Assembly (NCBI GenBank): GCA_033439295.1 | Contig: JAVTLE010000005.1 | Span: 1,290,501-1,354,500, forward strand | Direction of reading: 5' to 3' | Length of the DNA: 64,000 bases | Origin: Deuterostichococcus epilithicus | Lineage: Eukaryota; Chlorophyta; Trebouxiophyceae; Prasiolales; Stichococcaceae | Made by a program: the position numbers and the translations under genes | Notes under the pieces: model-generated | Told to the model about the DNA's origin: nothing | What the model saw: the letters and a program-made list of their open reading frames with translations, nothing else | Database searches by the model: none | Part shown: one piece after another, positions 20,789-30,400 of the stretch | Position numbering within the stretch: position 1 is the first letter of the stretch | How the letters are laid out: the number at the start of each line of letters is the position of its first letter

Positions 20789-23700
20789 TCACAATGCCAA
20801 CAGCTTGCGGATCTCGCCAAGCGCCGACTTGTCAAAAGGGGCACAGCCCATTGACAGCGGGAACCAGATGGCGGCGCCAAGAACGAACGCCGGCTTTGCA
20901 TACGCGCGCAGCAGGCCGCGCCAGCTGCCGCCGCCTGGCTCGGCTCCGTGAGAATAGTCGCCCTGTAGCAGGTGCCCGTCAGGGCCATGCAGCGACTGCT
21001 GCCTGTGCCCCGAAGGCGCCTGCGCCTGCGACACCGCGGAGTCTGGCGGCGTCGGCGGGTGCAGCAGCCGGTGCACCGCGCCCAGATTCATCACCAGGGC
21101 GCACTGCGCGCCGATCCAGGACCACCAGAGCGCCAGCCAAAGCTGCGGCCGGCCGCCGATCTTGGCCACCGCAAAGTAGCCGAGGCCGCCGCACACGAGG
21201 CCCATTCCCAGCAGCAGCTTGTTGAGCGGCATGACATGGTACGACGCCAGCAGCCGTGTCTTGAGCAGCACGAAGGCTGTGCCCAGCACGATCAGGACCT
21301 GCGGGCAGCGGGCGGATGTGTCGTCACAGGGAGTTAATGTGGATGCACCTCGTCACCGTATATGAGGACACGTCCTCATGACGACCAGGTGGAGGTTTTG
21401 CAAGCTGGCATGTGCAGCAGAACTGAGACGAGACCACAGAGGGATGTAGGAAACAGGGATGAAGAGGTAAGCAGCTGCTGAGAAGGACACCTGCTGCTGG
21501 ATGGGGCAGAGGAAAGGGAAGGCTGCGCACCCCGAACAACACGTCGCCAATGGTCAGCAGCCAGCAGGCGGCGGCCTGCAGTGGCGCCAGGACCTCCCAT
21601 GGCCGCAGCAGCGACACGGATGCCGGTGCGAGCGCCGGGCACGCGGCCAGGCGCACGTGCAGCAGCCCGTAGCGCGCGCCGCAGTACAGCGCCGCGACTG
21701 TTTGCAGCGCCAGCCCCAGCACCGTACAGTCCGTCAGCGACTGCGCAACAGGATTGGATTTCCTCGTGTAAGCGCTCTTCTTGCAAAGCAGATGAAAGTC
21801 GACGCTGTTTCAGCCTAGTACCAATCGGCATGGCGAGCTTCCCATGGCCGCTGGACGCCGCGCCATCTGCACTGCACCTGCACAGAGCAACGCAATGTGC
21901 CGATGCGAGCATAGGTATCACCGGCACAAATATTGCCGACGTGTTGAGACATGCAATGTTGCAAGTTCGCCAGGTCGGAATGTAAATCTCTTATTTTGCG
22001 TTGTTGATTGCATTTGCTGGAAGACGGGTTGTTTTCAATCGAATTCCTTGTCTCTGGAAATAGCGACAGCACCTGCTGCAGGCTGGCAATGCCGCGCAGC
22101 TCCTGCTGCGCCCGGAAGCGCGCCTGCTTGTCGGTCAGCCCCGTCGCCACCAGCCGGTTGTGCTGCGACCGCAGCGCATTGGCCTCCTCCCCGCGCCTGT
22201 GGTTCATGGGGGGATGCGTGCGTTGTGAGTGAGCTGGTGGATGCAGATGGATGCAGGTGGATGTCGTGACATCAGTGGGCGCACGTGTCAGGTCCATTGC
22301 ACGTAACTTGAACAACTGACCGAAGGGGTGCACTGCATTCAATTTTCATCAAGTGGGCTGCGCCCCATTTGCACAGGTTCATGCAAGCCACCTAATGGTC
22401 TTGTCAGCAATGCTGCATGTGGCAGGGCAAAAAGGCGCTCACATGGCGGTTTCGCGGTGGTAGTCGCGCTGCTGGAAGGTCTGCCATGCGCCGACTGCCG
22501 CGGTGATGAGCTGTATCTTCTCGCCCGCTGACAGGTCATCGACACGGATGTTCAGCCGGTCCGCCACCACCGACACCAGCTGCGCAGCACGGAGCAATTG
22601 ATATAAGTGAGTACATTTGATTTTCTGGTTACCATTTGCCACAACCTTCTTGCCGCCCGCCAGGTGGTCAACATGGATGGCTCAGCCGCTGTGCCACCAG
22701 TGACACCAGCTACGGACAGGAGCGCGTTAGTTACTTGCCGCACACTCTTCCACAGGAAGGAACCCGCGTCCTGCCTCTCTGAGATGGCACCAGGCTCACA
22801 GCCCTTTTGCTGCTCCCGAGGCCGATTTGGCCAACCATCGTGCAATTGTCCTCGTTGCAACCATGGTCCACTTCTTTTTGGACGAAACTTGGTGGACTGG
22901 AACTGTCCAGATGACAACGTGTGTGACACCTTCATCACCGCTCACCTGGGCTGCCTGCTGCCAGGAGTCCTCGGCCTCTGCCATGTGCCCCGGCTGCATG
23001 CCCGGCAGCGGTGGCAGCCGCTGCGTTGAGGCCGCAGACGCCTTTGAGTGCTCCGCTTCACCACTGTGCGCCGCCAGGGCTGCGGAAGTGCCGTGCTTGC
23101 CGCTTCCGCCATCGCCGACCGGCTGCTGATGGTTTGAAGCCTGTTCGTGTGCCGTAGCGGTGCTGCCCTCGCTGTGGCTGCTGTTCTGAGCTGCTGCCGG
23201 ACTAAATTGCAGCACGCCTGGCATGCCAGGCGTGGCAGACTCCAACTGGCTGACCTCAGCTGTGCTTGCCGGCAGGGTGTCCAGCGGTGCTGCCTGCAAA
23301 AGATCATGCAAGCGCCATTGCGATGCTTTCACAAAGAAGATTTCGTGTGACCTACAATACAGCAGCTGTACACGCAAGAGGAAGAAGGCCACACACCTCA
23401 TCGGCCCTGCTGCTGACTGGGAGCGGTGTCAGCGGCATCTGCACTTCGCCTTCAGCAGGCTCAGCTGGTGAGGCCTGTGCAGCTTTAGGCGGCCGCGCGG
23501 TCGCCGTTGGACTGTCAGTGCCGTTGCCAGCGGCCGCTGCTGTGCCGCTGCAGGCTGCTGCGGAGGCCTGTCGGCCCAACCGCTGAATTCGCGATGCTTC
23601 AGCGACCCCAGCGGCTGCCTGCTCTTTCTGCATCACTGCCGTGGTGGGTGCTGCGTCCGCGGCCATGGCTGTCGCAGGTGCTGTCAAATCAGCCAAGGCT

Positions 23701-24074
23701 GTAGGCTGCCCTCTCCTGCACCTGATGCCTCTCCGAAGCTGCCGGCGGCCCATCAGCCAGCCAGCCGCAAAGGCGACGAGGGCAGCAACAGCCAACGCCA
23801 GCCATAATTGCGGCATCGACAGATGTCCTGCAGCAGCGGCCGAAGGCGCGGGGCATTGCGACGAGGCGTCAGGGCAGGAGCCCCAGGGCAAAGGCGTCTC
23901 CACCAGGGCCGGTGTCTCCTGCCTCGCTGCCGGCCGGACCTCCACAGATTTGGCGGCAGCGTGCGGCGCTGCCGCCCTCGGACGGATGGTGGCCTTCGGG
24001 CCTGCGGCCCTCAAACGCTCCTCGGCGGCCAGTGCCGCGCGCCAGCCACGCGGAGCATGCTGCTGCACCGGCAT
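20789..24074 (-). CDS. Unrecognised multi-pass membrane protein
   Basis: I do not recognise this family. The likely start is 24074 (MPVQQHAPRGWRAALAAEER). The first large exon, to about 23395, has an Ala/Pro-rich segment, then a clear membrane helix (LWLALAVAALVAFAAGWLMG near 23790-23735) followed by basic residues. A Ser/Gln/His-rich low-complexity exon follows (near 23275-22950). Then come two helical, charged exons (SAGEKIQLITAAVGAWQTF near 22535-22475; LTDKQARFRAQQELRGIASL near 22140-22080) and hydrophobic exons (LALQTVAALYCGARYGLL near 21720-21660; NKLLLGMGLVCGGLGYFAVA near 21225-21165; KPAFVLGAAIWFPLSMG near 20905-20850). About six or seven membrane segments lie mostly in the C-terminal half. 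The stop is at 20789. It could be two genes split near 22650, since the joins around 22650-22950 are not resolved. It lies head-to-head with the torsin-like gene. Confidence 0.6.
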
Positions 24075-24670
24075 TGCGCCGCTGCAGCTGTGGCCGCATG
24101 CGCCCGAGAGTCAAAACGTCGTTCTTTCAAATCGTGTCTCACATAGCACACGATAGTCTGCACCCAATGAAAGCCTCGTTCATAGTCGATGTACGGAACG
24201 GCCGCTGCTACTGCTGTTGTTCCGAGCCTGCCTCCACCACCCGAGGTTGAAAGAGCGCGCCTGCTGCTTGCGCCGCTGAAGGCACAAGCTCTTTCGCATT
24301 CGCAAACTACTGCACCACTTCTTGTGCCGTTGGCTCCTCGGCGCCGTGCACAGCTGCTTGCGGAAGCTGCCTCACGCAACGGTGACTCAGCACTGCCTAG
24401 AGAGATGGCAAGGTGCAGCCATCTCCATCGCGTCTCACTCTGTCTGACCGTCGTCCGAGTGCATCAAGGAGTTGATTACCGAGCTCAGCCGGACCGCGGC
24501 GTATCGGAGCCCTCAGCGAAGCCTTTCGTGCAGGCCTTGAATTCGCTCTGGTTTTGCTATTCTCGACATCGGTCATGCGCAGCACTTCAAATCTGTGAAA
24601 TTTCTGCTGAGGCTTTCAATCTTCCAGCCTAGCGTGGTAAGCACCAGGCGCGCGACAACAGCGTCGTCGC
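24075..24670. promoter_or_regulatory. Divergent spacer between orphan membrane protein and torsin-like gene
   Basis: About 0.6 kb between opposing starts. Open frames exist on both strands (plus from 24189, minus from 24379), but they overlap each other and neither joins its neighbour's coding exons in phase, so they are taken as 5' UTR exons or chance. Confidence 0.4.
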
Positions 24671-27256
24671 ATGGTAACGCCGCTCGCGGCGGCAGCCGCG
24701 ACCGCTGTGCTTGGCGTCGTGGCCACCATGTTCCAAGGTGATGTCAACATTTCGCTGATTGTCTCAGGAGTGGCTTCAGTGCAAGAGCCACACACGTCCT
24801 TCAAGTCCACATAGTGTGGACTTGACATAGACTTACTCATGCGGCGTTCTGCAGGGCACCACCGCTTTGCTCCGGGCGCCTGCGAGCGACTGGAGCCCTT
24901 TCTGTCAGAACACATCGTGGGCCAGGAGCTGGCCATCAGGCAGTTCTCAGACGCCGTGTGCGACCTGCTGCGCCAGGAGGGCGTCGCAGCACCCGGCAAG
25001 CCGCTCATCATGTCAGGTTGGCATTGTTTGGACTGCCACATGGACTGCCACATGAAGCGTCCAGGCTGACTTGCGTTTTCACTGGCATGCTGCCGATGCT
25101 ATGAGGAGGCATTGAAGATGTACAATACTTTTACTCGAACCTTGTGGTTCTTTTCCAATGTCGATCTGGCTGTGCAGCACATGGGCCACCGGGCGTCGGC
25201 AAGTCGCTGACACACTGGCTGGCAGCAAGGGCTTTGTACAACACGGACCCCCTGGCGGACAGTCGATGTCCGGGCCATGCCTGTGCAGGCTACAAGGTGC
25301 GGCCGAGGCGAAAGGGTCTCTGAATAGCCAGTCGAGATGTGCTTTTCTGAATGGCATGTGATTCTTCATTCACGCTGGCAAGACAGGCAAACCCAAGGCA
25401 ATTTGATTCGGAAAGCTGTTCATTGATCAAGCAGACAAGTTTTTTGCGTCAGGTTCAGTCTGTCGAATGTGAGCAGCTGCTGGCCCATCGAGAAGTCCTT
25501 GTGCCCAGGAGGTGCTGTACGATTTGAATGCATGCAGCTGCTGGCTCGTTCAGACGTCCTTGTGTCCCAAAGGTGTTGTACGGCATGGACTACGTGAGCG
25601 CGGAGCGCTCGGACCAGCACGGCTACCTGCGGGCCGCGCTGCTTGACCACCTCAAATCGTGCGGCAGCGCGCTGCTGGTCATCGAGGAGTACGACAAGCT
25701 GGACTGCCCGACGCGCGCAATGTTCCGCCAGCTGTTCGAGAACCTGCACTCTGCCAATGTCACCGGCAGTAGGTGCGTAGAGCTGCTCGCAAGGGGCACG
25801 TTGAGAAGTCAGAATGCAGGAGCAGGTCCAAGGCTACCTTGGGTCCCTGCCGAACGCCGCCCTCAGTCAAGGCGACACCACACTGTGTGCTGACATCCGC
25901 GCGAGCCAGCCACACGTCTGAGCCGGTCAGACAAGCTGAAGATTTGTTCTCGGCTTGCAGACCTATCATCCTGCTAGAGTCCAACACCGGCTACACGCAA
26001 CTCCACCAGATGCTGGAGGAGGCTGGTGACCGCTCCAAGGTGGGTTGATGCCGTCGACCAATTTTAGACAAGGAGGAATGCAGCGTATGCACTTCCCATT
26101 TTTCCCAGGAAGGCTGGCTCCTAGGGAGGCTGCCTGTGCAAAACAGCCTATGTTTGGTTCTGCCCAAATGTGCTCCACGTTGTGTCAGCTTCAGCGGGTC
26201 ATGCCGCCTGCATCTCCCAGGTCCATGCGGAGGACGCACAGCGGGCACTGAAGGACCTCATCTTCCAAACCTGGGCGAGCGGCGAGTGCGAGTCGCGGGC
26301 CGACACGCTGAAGATGGTGCGCCTTGCCACCCGCGGTGTCAGCATTGTCTGGAGGGCTGTGTTGTGGTGCTGTGTCGCCCGCCAGAGGGAGGGGGCCATG
26401 GTGGTCTTGCAGGCTTGCAAAATCTCGGCCTCCAATGCACACCAGCACTGATGCACTTCAGTATGACAGCACAGGCCCACTATAGAGAATTATGAGCCCG
26501 TCGAACCCGGCCGCAGGTCGGCATGATCGACTTCTTCCTGCCGTACTTGCCGCTGGAGCAGCCGCACATACGGCGGCTGTTCGGGATGCAGCTGCGTGAG
26601 GAGGCTGACACGCTGCGGCGGCGGCACCGCTGCCGCCTGACCTGGGGCTCGGCCGAGGTCGACTTCCTGGTCAGCAAGGTGAAGTCTCGTCCTACTGTGG
26701 TAATTAATTACTCCCTTCATTTCATGCCTGCATTTGAGGCACTGGAACAGCGCTGCGAGCTGTATCGTCAAGCTCTGCTGCGTCCGACCTTACTGGTCAA
26801 CGTGTCGCCTGTCAGGTGGATTTCGAGGTTGGCTACGCCATTGAGGGGGCAAAGGAGGTGTCCACGGTCATGACGCGGCACGTAAGCCGGCTGCTGCGGC
26901 CCTGGCTTGCAAGCCAGCTACAGGGCGAAGGTCTTCAGGTACGCCTGGGCAAGTGTGATGCTGGTCTTTGAACGATCCATCCTTAAAACTCAGAACAGAC
27001 GGGCAAGTCCTCACGGCTGTCCTTGCAGGCGCGTCGGCGGCAAGCCACCGACCATTTCAAGCACTATTTACAACAAGCAGCAAACAGCGGCGGCCATGCA
27101 GTCAGCCGCATGCTGGGCAGAGGCAGCGGCAGCAGGGCAGAGGAAGTGGTCAGGCATGCAGAGGCAGAGGAAGATCATGGAGTCTCGTTGCATCTGCAGC
27201 TGTCGCCCGACGGCCGGACGTTGACATTGGAAGAAGCGTCTCGGCTTTCAGTCTAA
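24671..27256 (+). CDS. Torsin-like AAA+ ATPase with predicted ER signal anchor
   Basis: AAA+ ATPase of the Clp/torsin branch. Exons: 24671-24737, 24855-25016, 25178-25296, 25573-25772, 25961-26039, 26221-26316, 26517-26678, 26816-26938, 27029-27256. All phases close and give 411 residues. Exon 1 is a hydrophobic N-terminus (MVTPLAAAAATAVLGVVATM). Then FLSEHIVGQELAIRQFSDAV matches the start of torsin cores. Walker A is HGPPGVGKSLTHWL and Walker B is LLVIEEYDKLD. A sensor-1-like Asn is in ILLESNTG. DFFLPYLPLEQPHIRRLF matches the torsin 'DYFVPFLPLEYKHL' block. Sensor-2 is EGAKEVSTVMTRHVSRLL. Classical torsins have GxTGxGKN and a GCK cysteine motif; here these are GPPGVGKS and GAK, closer to ClpB. 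One sequon (NVTG) lies after the Walker B exon. About 75 residues extend past the core. Family assignment is firm at the AAA+ level and good at the torsin-like level. Confidence 0.82.
25030..25053. repeat. 12-bp tandem duplication in torsin-like intron
   Basis: GGACTGCCACAT occurs twice in direct succession just after the exon ending at 25016. Confidence 0.8.
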
Positions 27257-27477: not shown

Positions 27478-30400
27478 CTACGAGAGCTCGGCGCACTGCT
27501 GCACCACCATAGCTTCCCGCCCCGGCCCAACGCCGATCCAGGTGCACTGCACTCCGACAAGCTCCTCGATGCGCCTGCGGGGTTTGATGAGGCTCGAAAT
27601 CACCGTTCGAGCCTGGCCACAACAGCAAGTCAGGACGCATTGCAAAGCAGCGAGAATGTACAGAGCGCAGCGCATTGGCCGAATGCCCTGCGATGCCAGG
27701 ACACAGTAGGTGTGCCGCAGAATATCACCGAAGCGGTAGGGCAGTTCATTGCACAGGGTTTGTGCGACAGGCACCTGATGTACTTCTGGGCATTGGCGGG
27801 CAGCTCGTCCCAGGAGCGGGCGCCGGAGATGTCCTGTTGCCAGCCGGGGTGCTCCTCCCACACCACCTCAACCCCGCTGAAGGTCTTCAGGTCCGACGGC
27901 ACCGACGGCAGATCCTGTGCGACATTCGTACAGCGACTGAAGACGGTGATCGCTTCTACTTGCTCCTAGAGAAGGCAACGCATGTTTCCAGCTCTCCCAG
28001 GCTTCCCTCCAGCCCTCGAATGCACCGTCCAAGCACAGCTTTTGAACAGCATTGCAGACGCCTGCTTGCGTTCGAAGCCTGCAGGGTGTCTCAAACATCG
28101 AACCATCAAACAGCAGACGGCGCCGGTCACCTGGCCGTTGTGCTTGTACCCTGTGCACAGCTTGATGGTCTCCAGCTTGGACAGCACGTCCAGCTTGGTC
28201 AGGTTTAGGTGCGTGAAGCCGTTGATTCTGTGGCAGGTGACTTCAACTGATCAGCTCTTTGCGAAACTGCGAAGCGATGGCAAGATGCAGTACCCTCGCC
28301 GCAGAAGCAGTGCTGCCATCTTTGGCGTCAGTGGCCATGCAGGTGCCTTGTGCGACCAGCGACAGACACAAGATCACTTCAGGGCAAGTAGCCGTGCGCA
28401 CACTCGAGCCTGGCCGCCCGTGCCTGCCGCCCTCGAGCACAACCACCTGATGACACACTGCAAGGCGGGATGTCAAGCCGGCTGATGCACGGCGAGCACA
28501 CCTGCGCCATGCCCGCGCTCGCTGCCTTGTGGCTCACCTCGTGACGTACTGCAGCGCCGGGATGTCGAGCCAGCCAATGCGGCGGGGGCGGCCGGTGGTG
28601 GTGCCGTACTCGGCGCCCTCCTCGCGCAGCTCCTCTGCCAGCTCGCCGTGAATCTCCGTCGGGTAGGGGCCCTCGCCCACGCGCGTGGTGTACGCCTTCA
28701 CCTGTTTGGGTTTTGGCGCAGATTGAGTGCGGGGCCTTGCACACATCGCGTTTGAACCGCTTGCAGATCCCTTGGACCCTTGCACCCCCTTTGTCTCCAA
28801 TGGGAGAACTGTTCGTTTGCCGGCACCTCTGTCAGACCACTGAGACCTCAAGTCTGCAGCCACTGCTTGGACAGAGCCACACAGTGTAGCCGTCCCACCC
28901 AGGGTGGTCCCAGCAAGGCCGCGCCGCAGAGCATTTCAGAACGAGAAGATTACAGCTGGCGCACCACGCCAATGACGGTCTGCAGCTTCTGTGGTGCGAT
29001 GCCCAGCCCCGCGATGACGCCGCCGATGGAGGGGTTGGAAGAGGTGACGTAGGGGTAGGTACCAAAGTCCAGGTCCAGCATCGTGGCGTTGGCGCCCTCG
29101 ATCAGGATGCGCTTCCCCTGCGCGTGCGCCTCATGCACATAGTGCACCGTGTCCGTGATCCTGTGGAGGGATGCAACATCGTTCCGTGTCAGGCGGTCGT
29201 TCAGTGGCTGCTTGCACAGCACCGCCTGTTGTCTACATTGACACCACGGCGGCATGGGCCCCGGCCAAATCTGCGCGTCGTTGGTGGCTGCGACCGGTCA
29301 CAGACACTGAGTTACAGGTTCGCGTGTCACCATCTAGCCATAGACCCCCATTCAGACAGCTCGTCATCCGCAGCCGCAGCGTGCCCAATCTCATTGCGGT
29401 ATGCCGGCAGGACGCAATGGCTTCGAGGAGACGTGAGGTGCTCGGCGCTCACATGGGCAGCACTCGCTCGGCGATGCCCTTGTAGGCCTCGATGTCCGCC
29501 TCCACATCGTACTCGAAGCCTTCGAAGCGCTTGGCGCCGTCCGCCGCCAGCACCCGCAGCTTGGCGGCAAAGGTCTCCGAATCCCGCAGGTCGCCAGCGC
29601 GCACGCCATTGCGAGTGGCCTGCACAAGCAGCAGACGACGCCTCTGGTCTCAACTGCCGACCGCACGTCGCTGCAGTGTCGGACCCTGCCCGAACAGCGT
29701 TCTTTGTCCAGACCCCTCCATGTACATGCCCCGATGGCTTGCTGGCGCAGGTGCACTGACTGCCGGCCTGCACATCACTGTGCATGGCCTGTGCCTGTGC
29801 ACACTGACGACTCGAACTGGCAGCACCTGCTTTCATGGCTGTGAACGAGGTCTGCACTGAGATGAGGGCATCTTGTCCCTCTGACAAAGCAGTCTGCGAG
29901 ACGTGTGGTTCCAGCTGCCAGCTGCCGGCTGCCGGCGACTGGTGCTCATCTGCAACCTGCAACAAGGAACGACGCCACCCCCCTGCCCACATGAGGCTGT
30001 CTTTCCTGAGTCCCCACCTTGGAGGCGTAGGCCGGCCCGATTCCGCGCTTGGTGGTGCCGATCATCTTGCCGGCCAGCTCCGCCTCCCGCAGCCCGTCGA
30101 TCTCCTTGTGCAGGTCGAACAGCAGGTGGGCGCGGTCCGACACCTTCAGCCGCCCGTCCACGTCGACGCCCTGGCCCCTCAGCGTCTCAATCTCCTCGAA
30201 CAGCCCCGGCAGGTGCACCACGACGCCTGCACAGCAGAGCGCATGATGGGCATCGGGCTGCGCTGTCGCGCGGTGGGACTCTGGACGTATGCGCAAATGG
30301 GATCCAGCAGGTGCAGATATGCTGGTTTCTGCTGATCCAGCAGGCCCACTCTTCGTCTCGGATGCATAAGGCGAACAGAGCATGATCAGCGTGCTGCCAG

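What the first reader, a model, noticed from the sequence alone, without database searches (positions are those of the whole stretch)
24671..27256. Torsin-like AAA+ ATPase in a green alga, with a predicted ER signal anchor
Torsins are usually described as animal ER/nuclear-envelope ATPases and as absent from plants. This algal gene has the torsin-type C-terminal block (DFFLPYLPLEQPHIRRLF), a hydrophobic N-terminus on its own small exon and an N-glycosylation sequon. It keeps a canonical Walker A (GPPGVGKS) and a GAK sensor-2 in place of the torsin GxTGxGKN and GCK motifs. It could represent an ancestral-like form between ClpB and torsins, perhaps self-sufficient in ATP hydrolysis rather than cofactor-activated. 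The sequence features are read directly; the evolutionary reading is inference.
Basis: partly seen in the sequence, partly recalled or inferred. Interest (0 to 1): 0.75.

Follow-up and report, generated by a model that had tools for sequence, protein, structure and literature searches.

The report
Green-algal sister family of animal torsins
This green-algal gene encodes a small ATP-driven protein machine that looks like the closest known relative of animal torsins, dystonia-linked proteins usually described as animal-only, and it shares their unusual missing catalytic residue, which suggests that it too needs a partner protein to work.

Summary
The gene is real: nine GT-AG exons at 24671-27256 encode a 411-residue AAA+ protein, with no second copy found in its genome. 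It belongs to a family whose named members seen here are all chlorophyte green algae (many others are unnamed environmental sequences). Tree, profile and motif evidence set it apart from the genome's own Clp proteins (grouping rejected, p = 0.0007) and join it to animal torsins (98/95 support). It shares torsin departures from Clp: no arginine finger (0 of 86 aligned members), no aromatic pore loop, Lys sensor 2, and S-x-HG before Walker A. A conserved short hydrophobic N-terminus, a sequon at one column in 73 of 86 members and conserved cysteines point to the ER/perinuclear lumen. It lacks three torsin hallmarks: GKN Walker A, GCK sensor 2 and the TOR1A_C domain; its C-terminal end is ClpB-like. 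I therefore call it a torsin-like sister family, not a torsin proper. No LAP1-type partner was detected, but that test is weak. The tree has long branches and only vertebrate torsins. Localisation and activity are inferred, not shown.

The parts
24671..27256 (+). whole gene, nine exons, 411-aa torsin-like AAA+ protein
   Evidence: spliced translation, all introns GT-AG; the nine matches found in the own genome all lie at this locus (counts there are lower bounds)
24671..24737 (+). exon 1: start codon and hydrophobic segment (residues 4-21 are a helix in the model of the close relative P0001); predicted ER signal/anchor
   Evidence: 50 of 60 members with at least 30 residues before the GQ motif have a 17-residue stretch with mean hydropathy of 1.6 or more
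24855..25016 (+). exon 2: F-x-P-x-A-C (C32), helix and GQ-x-LA
25178..25296 (+). exon 3: Walker A GPPGVGKS (25183-25206) and invariant CPGxxC loop (25267-25284)
25573..25772 (+). exon 4: Walker B VIEEYDK (25678-25698), C161, R164, R168 and N-glycosylation sequon at N178 (from 25756)
25961..26039 (+). exon 5: sensor 1 ESNTG (25977-25991)
26221..26316 (+). exon 6: helix with invariant C232
26517..26678 (+). exon 7: arginine-finger position occupied by M244, then the torsin-type block IDFFLPYLPLE (26520-26582)
26816..26938 (+). exon 8: sensor 2 GAK (GAKEV at 26846-26860)
27029..27256 (+). exon 9: C-terminal end; in P0001's model it carries two strands (388-394, 401-405) within the range matched by SKD3/ClpB structures but not by torsinA

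Best explanation
A chlorophyte torsin-like AAA+ ATPase, sister to animal torsins and derived from the Clp/HSP100 type. A short N-terminal hydrophobic segment sends it into the ER/perinuclear lumen, where it is probably N-glycosylated at N178 and disulfide-bonded. Each subunit has a Walker A, Walker B and sensor 1 and can bind ATP, but provides no arginine finger and no substrate-threading pore loop. By analogy with torsins, it is expected to hydrolyse ATP only beside a partner that supplies the arginine in trans, and to remodel a lumenal or membrane protein rather than thread it. Shown by sequence: gene, family, motif losses. Supported but not settled: tree position. Inferred: compartment, glycosylation, disulfides. 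By analogy only: partner, remodelling role.
For: Gene and family. Tree: 27 algal rows plus 12 torsins against 15 Clp/SKD3 rows, 98/95; same split at 99 SH-aLRT in three quick rebuilds, one without the FLPYLPLE columns. Grouping with three own-genome Clp rows rejected p = 0.0007, with SKD3 p = 0.004. Profile: torsinA 83 bits, best ClpB 58.8, SKD3 57.2; algal HMM scores 120 torsin hits at 77.5-132 bits and 15 Clp/SKD3 rows at 17.3-58.7. Arg finger 0/86 against R in 14/15 Clp; sensor-2 K in 76 of 85 against R in 15/15 Clp and K in 119/120 torsins; H before Walker A 86/86 algal, 120/120 torsin, 0/15 Clp. Pore-loop pattern in 0 of 80 algal regions, 0 of 109 torsin, 13 of 14 Clp. Compartment: sequon at one column in 73 of 86, +2 residue S in 46 and T in 27; C107, C112, C161, C232 in 86/86. 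Torsin properties: PMC4358337, PMC4999309, PMC7175109 (passages).
Confidence: 0.66

Rival explanations
1. A self-sufficient homo-oligomer: the canonical Walker A plus a family-specific arginine (R164 or R168, in the helix after Walker B) acts in trans in place of the lost finger, so no partner is needed.
For: R164 is Arg in 85 of 86 and R168 in 76 of 86 members; the commonest Clp letters there are F/L/Q/Y and L. Walker A has S/T in 86 of 86.
Against: These residues lie in the helix after Walker B, not at the end of helix alpha5 where the finger is expected and where LAP1 places it (PMC4358337, passages). The R168 column is Lys in 120 of 120 torsins, which are partner-dependent.
Confidence: 0.15
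2. An independent ER-targeted offshoot of a ClpB/SKD3-like protein that lost pore loop and arginine finger convergently with torsins; the tree joins it to torsins by long-branch attraction.
For: Long-branch warnings; alternative rooting not rejected, p = 0.296; structure best matched by SKD3; equal hhalign scores to torsin and Clp.
Against: SKD3 grouping rejected p = 0.004; shared S-x-HG, Lys sensor 2 and FLPxxPLE block; every torsin hit scores above every Clp row in the algal HMM; the split stays when the FLPYLPLE block is removed.
Confidence: 0.2
3. An organellar (plastid or mitochondrial) Clp-family chaperone subunit.
For: Clp/HSP100 fold; one relative is named 'probable chaperone protein ClpB' and others ClpA in databases; TIGR03345 (ClpV/TssH) is the best NCBIfam hit at 30.3 bits, cut-off 885.
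Against: Grouping with three own-genome Clp rows rejected; no room for a transit peptide before the hydrophobic segment; conserved sequon and cysteines.
Confidence: 0.05

Closest known systems
Animal torsins (TorsinA/B; PF06309 + PF21376)
   Same: Clp-derived single AAA+ domain, hydrophobic N-terminus, no arginine finger, no pore loop, Lys sensor 2, S-x-HG before Walker A, [IV]D-x-F-x-P-F-x-PLE block, a Cys in the aligned C32 column in 102 of 120; profile and tree neighbour
   Different: Walker A GKS/T not GKN; sensor 2 GAK/GGK not GCK; C107, C112, C161, C232 not in torsins, and the torsin Cys before Walker B (120 of 120) in only 2 of 86 algal rows; ClpB-type C-terminal end, no TOR1A_C; no LAP1/LULL1 found
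SKD3/CLPB (human mitochondrial)
   Same: AAA+ domain of ClpB-D2 type; best structural match of the P0001 model, to its C-terminus
   Different: SKD3 has an arginine finger (FLGRINE), GYVG pore loop and GAR sensor 2 (sequence), and (recalled) ankyrin repeats and mitochondrial targeting; grouping rejected, p = 0.004
ClpB/Hsp104/ClpC D2 domain
   Same: fold and nucleotide site, canonical Walker A
   Different: Clp rows keep arginine finger (14 of 15), pore loop (13 of 14) and Arg sensor 2 (15 of 15)
LAP1/LULL1 lumenal domains
   Same: the expected kind of partner
   Different: no LAP1_C match in this genome (weak test, control empty)

Membership tests
Torsin | AAA+ domain of Clp/HSP100 type, one per chain | tested here: met
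Torsin | Pfam Torsin PF06309 above curated cut-off | tested here: inconclusive
   window 24.5 bits and P0001 22.0, both under 27; P0004 42.7, P0103 30.8 and P0043 27.1 pass, P0039 25.0 does not; 85 of 85 relatives match at E <= 1e-3
Torsin | arginine finger absent | tested here: met
   0 of 86 Arg at the aligned column, and 0 of 18 dropped members with the block; Clp 14 of 15 Arg. Arg one residue earlier in 17 of 86
Torsin | aromatic pore loop absent | tested here: met
   0 of 80 algal regions found with the pattern; torsin 0 of 109; Clp 13 of 14
Torsin | Walker A GxxxxGKN | tested here: not met
   S 57, T 29 of 86; torsins N 120 of 120
Torsin | sensor 2 GCK | tested here: not met
   G 45, A 40, gap 1 of 86 at the Cys column; torsins C in 119 of 120
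Torsin | TOR1A_C domain (PF21376) | tested here: not met
   not among the nine families matched by any of 85 members at E <= 1e-3; present in Torsin-1A P0142
Torsin | groups with animal torsins apart from Clp | tested here: met
   98/95; three rebuilds at 99 SH-aLRT; but one alternative rooting is not rejected and only vertebrate torsins were used
Torsin | ER/nuclear-envelope lumen residence | tested here: inconclusive
   hydrophobic N-terminus, sequon and cysteines conserved; no localisation data
Torsin | activation by LAP1/LULL1-type cofactor | tested here: inconclusive
   PF05609 no match in own genome, control empty
Organellar ClpB/ClpC | groups with the genome's own Clp proteins | tested here: not met
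   p-AU 0.0007 with three of five own-genome Clp rows
Organellar ClpB/ClpC | arginine finger, pore loop, GAR sensor 2 | tested here: not met
SKD3 | groups with SKD3; arginine finger present | tested here: not met
   p-AU 0.004; no Arg at finger position

The most novel reading that the evidence does not exclude
Torsins are not an animal invention. An activator-dependent, ER-lumenal, non-threading AAA+ ATPase existed before animals and green algae split; green algae keep a form with the original ATP site and ClpB-like tail, together with an unknown arginine-donating partner unrelated to LAP1 by sequence.
Probability: 0.4. Interest if true: 0.82.

Novelty: new variant of a known kind. Interest (0 to 1): 0.62.

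Why it matters
[quoted passage not shown] 'animal-specific subfamily', PMC4210606, passage). A chlorophyte sister family, present also in Chlamydomonas and Volvox species, suggests a series from ClpB to torsin: pore loop and arginine finger gone, Walker A and C-terminal end still Clp-like. It would let one ask, in a tractable unicellular alga, what a lumenal AAA+ ATPase does at the nuclear envelope or ER without neurons, and which protein supplies the missing arginine.

Tried and rejected
Pfam Torsin, TOR1A_C and LAP1_C searched directly in the own genome: no hits. The Torsin search missed even this gene, since exons are scored apart, and two of the three controls were empty, so these absences carry no weight.

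Prokaryote genomes: 591 stretches matched peptide patterns, none confirmed. Viral contigs: 38 stretches, none confirmed. So no close prokaryotic or viral source was found by this method, which depends on a few short peptide patterns.

A typed consensus torsin probe, meant to reach invertebrate torsins, listed in its best 120 of 2455 hits only vertebrate torsins where named (TOR1A, TOR1B or just 'torsin') and a few unnamed ones. Invertebrate, choanoflagellate and protist torsins are therefore missing from the tree. No streptophyte or mamiellophyte name was seen among the 120 listed of 397 profile hits; absence there is not shown.

Considered and rejected: organellar ClpB, SKD3-like, pseudogene (open reading, splice sites and conservation intact), chance motif match.

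Ten paper searches on torsin with green algae, Chlamydomonas, choanoflagellate, Viridiplantae, Archaeplastida, algae, plants and non-metazoan: no title, abstract start or passage that I saw describes an algal torsin family. I opened eight papers, passages only; other listed papers were not opened, and only open-licence papers are held. One of them (PMC3352338) calls ClpA and ClpB the torsinA orthologues of bacteria, yeast and plants.

Rows: of 128 algal-type proteins listed (P0001-P0128), 85 were aligned as A2 and 43 dropped as fragments, poor models or long divergent forms; one search checked these 43 and found the finger block in 18. The tree used 26 of the 128 plus the window, and 12 of 120 torsin hits. 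The pore-loop count left out 6 of 86 algal, 11 of 120 torsin and 1 of 15 Clp rows in which the region was not found.

Full report
Observation. Nine exons, all with GT-AG introns, run from 24671 to 27256 and give 411 residues. The start codon follows an in-frame stop at 24638 with no other ATG between. No second copy was found: all nine matches of the protein in the 46.8-Mb assembly are its own exons (the tool's counts are lower bounds). Close relatives have the same short N-terminus, so exon 1 is conserved as protein: P0001 begins MVAPLAAAAATAVIG against MVTPLAAAAATAVLG in the window.

Family. One search gave 87 homologues at E <= 1e-5, and a profile search 397 at E <= 1e-3, of which 120 are listed. 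Many are unnamed. Those that bear an organism name are chlorophytes: Chlorella, Micractinium, Coccomyxa, Elliptochloris, Myrmecia, Auxenochlorella, Nannochloris, Trebouxia, Symbiochloris, Apatococcus, Picochlorum, Ostreobium, Gonium, Edaphochlamys, Volvox, Chlamydomonas, Raphidocelis, a pedinophyte, and Pyramimonas parkeae. Only the last was looked up; the others are placed from recall, and Botryococcus and Tetraselmis are my reading of database codes. Databases call members 'Torsin-1A', 'probable chaperone protein ClpB', 'ClpA' or hypothetical.

Relation to torsins. With one sequence the best solved relative is TorsinA (E 3e-8; SKD3 0.001). With the profile TorsinA scores 83 bits against 58.8 for the best ClpB and 57.2 for the best SKD3. 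The algal HMM scores 120 torsin hits at 77.5-132 bits and 15 Clp/SKD3 rows at 17.3-58.7. In a careful tree of 54 rows, 27 algal rows and 12 torsins lie together against 15 Clp and SKD3 rows with 98/95 support; the bootstrap had not settled. The split held at 99 SH-aLRT in quick trees without ClpX, without ClpX and the FLPYLPLE columns, and without four long rows including ClpX. Support for the algal rows alone was 95/97 in the careful tree and 94, 79 and 92 in the quick ones. Holding the algal rows with three own-genome Clp rows is rejected (p-AU 0.0007), as is holding them with SKD3 (0.004). Against this: with ClpX outside, a tree with torsins and Clp together and algae out is not rejected (p 0.296), and one with algae and Clp together is only just rejected (p 0.039). 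Branches are long, and only vertebrate torsins were available.

Shared and unshared features, from an alignment of 86 algal rows, 120 torsin hits and 15 Clp/SKD3 rows. The arginine-finger column is never Arg in algae (L 42, M 11, S 10, A 8, others), L or V in torsins, and Arg in 14 of 15 Clp rows. Eighteen of the 43 dropped members contain the block and none has Arg. In 17 of 86 rows an Arg lies one residue earlier. Sensor 2 is Lys in 76 of 85 algal and 119 of 120 torsin rows, Arg in all 15 Clp rows. The His before Walker A is in all algal and torsin rows and in no Clp row. The Clp pore-loop pattern is in 0 of 80 algal regions, 0 of 109 torsin regions and 13 of 14 Clp regions. Three torsin hallmarks are missing: Walker A Asn, sensor-2 Cys, and TOR1A_C. 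The window protein is below the Pfam Torsin cut-off.

Compartment. 50 of 60 members with at least 30 residues before the GQ motif have a 17-residue stretch of mean hydropathy 1.6 or more, mostly starting within the first ten residues, with about 42 residues in all before that motif; 10 of 60 do not, and 26 of 86 were not assessed. A sequon stands at one column in 73 of 86 rows; the next most frequent column has 12. Position +2 is Ser in 46 and Thr in 27 of the 78 rows with Asn there, a switch that fits selection on the sequon. Four cysteines are in 86 of 86 rows, C58 in 81 and C32 in 69 (13 gaps); the C32 column is also Cys in 102 of 120 torsins. The algal core has a median of six cysteines, the Clp rows none. 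This fits an oxidising, glycosylating lumen. It is inference.

Mechanism. Torsins lack an arginine finger and are activated by LAP1 or LULL1, which supply it (PMC4358337, PMC4999309, PMC7175109; passages). The canonical Walker A suggests that ATP binding is ordinary. R164 (85 of 86) and R168 (76 of 86) are the only arginines conserved at 85% or more and could be an alternative finger. No LAP1_C match was found in the genome, but its control was empty.

Novelty. [quoted passage not shown] In ten searches I saw no paper on an algal torsin family, though not every listed paper was opened. The family fails three torsin-defining features, so I file it as a sister family that probably works like a torsin: a new variant of a known kind.

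Noticed in passing
window 27630-27965 and 28950-29297, - strand: Exons of an adenylosuccinate synthetase gene (PF00709) lie convergent to the torsin-like gene, beyond its 3' end.
   Followed up: partly
window 23352-24110, - strand: A 252-residue open frame with a hydrophobic stretch lies divergently upstream; no Pfam match, and it may be chance in GC-rich DNA.
   Followed up: partly
own genome C3, C7, C10, C13, C14 (L026-L030): Five Clp/HSP100 loci with canonical arginine fingers, the Clp set against which the gene was compared.
   Followed up: partly
family alignment, window residues 107-112: CPGxxC loop with both cysteines in 86 of 86 members, not in the torsin or Clp rows; role unknown, possibly a disulfide or redox element.
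   Followed up: no
family alignment, window residue 154: The Walker B Asp is Glu (EE instead of DE) in 85 of 86 algal members, an unusual but consistent change.
   Followed up: no
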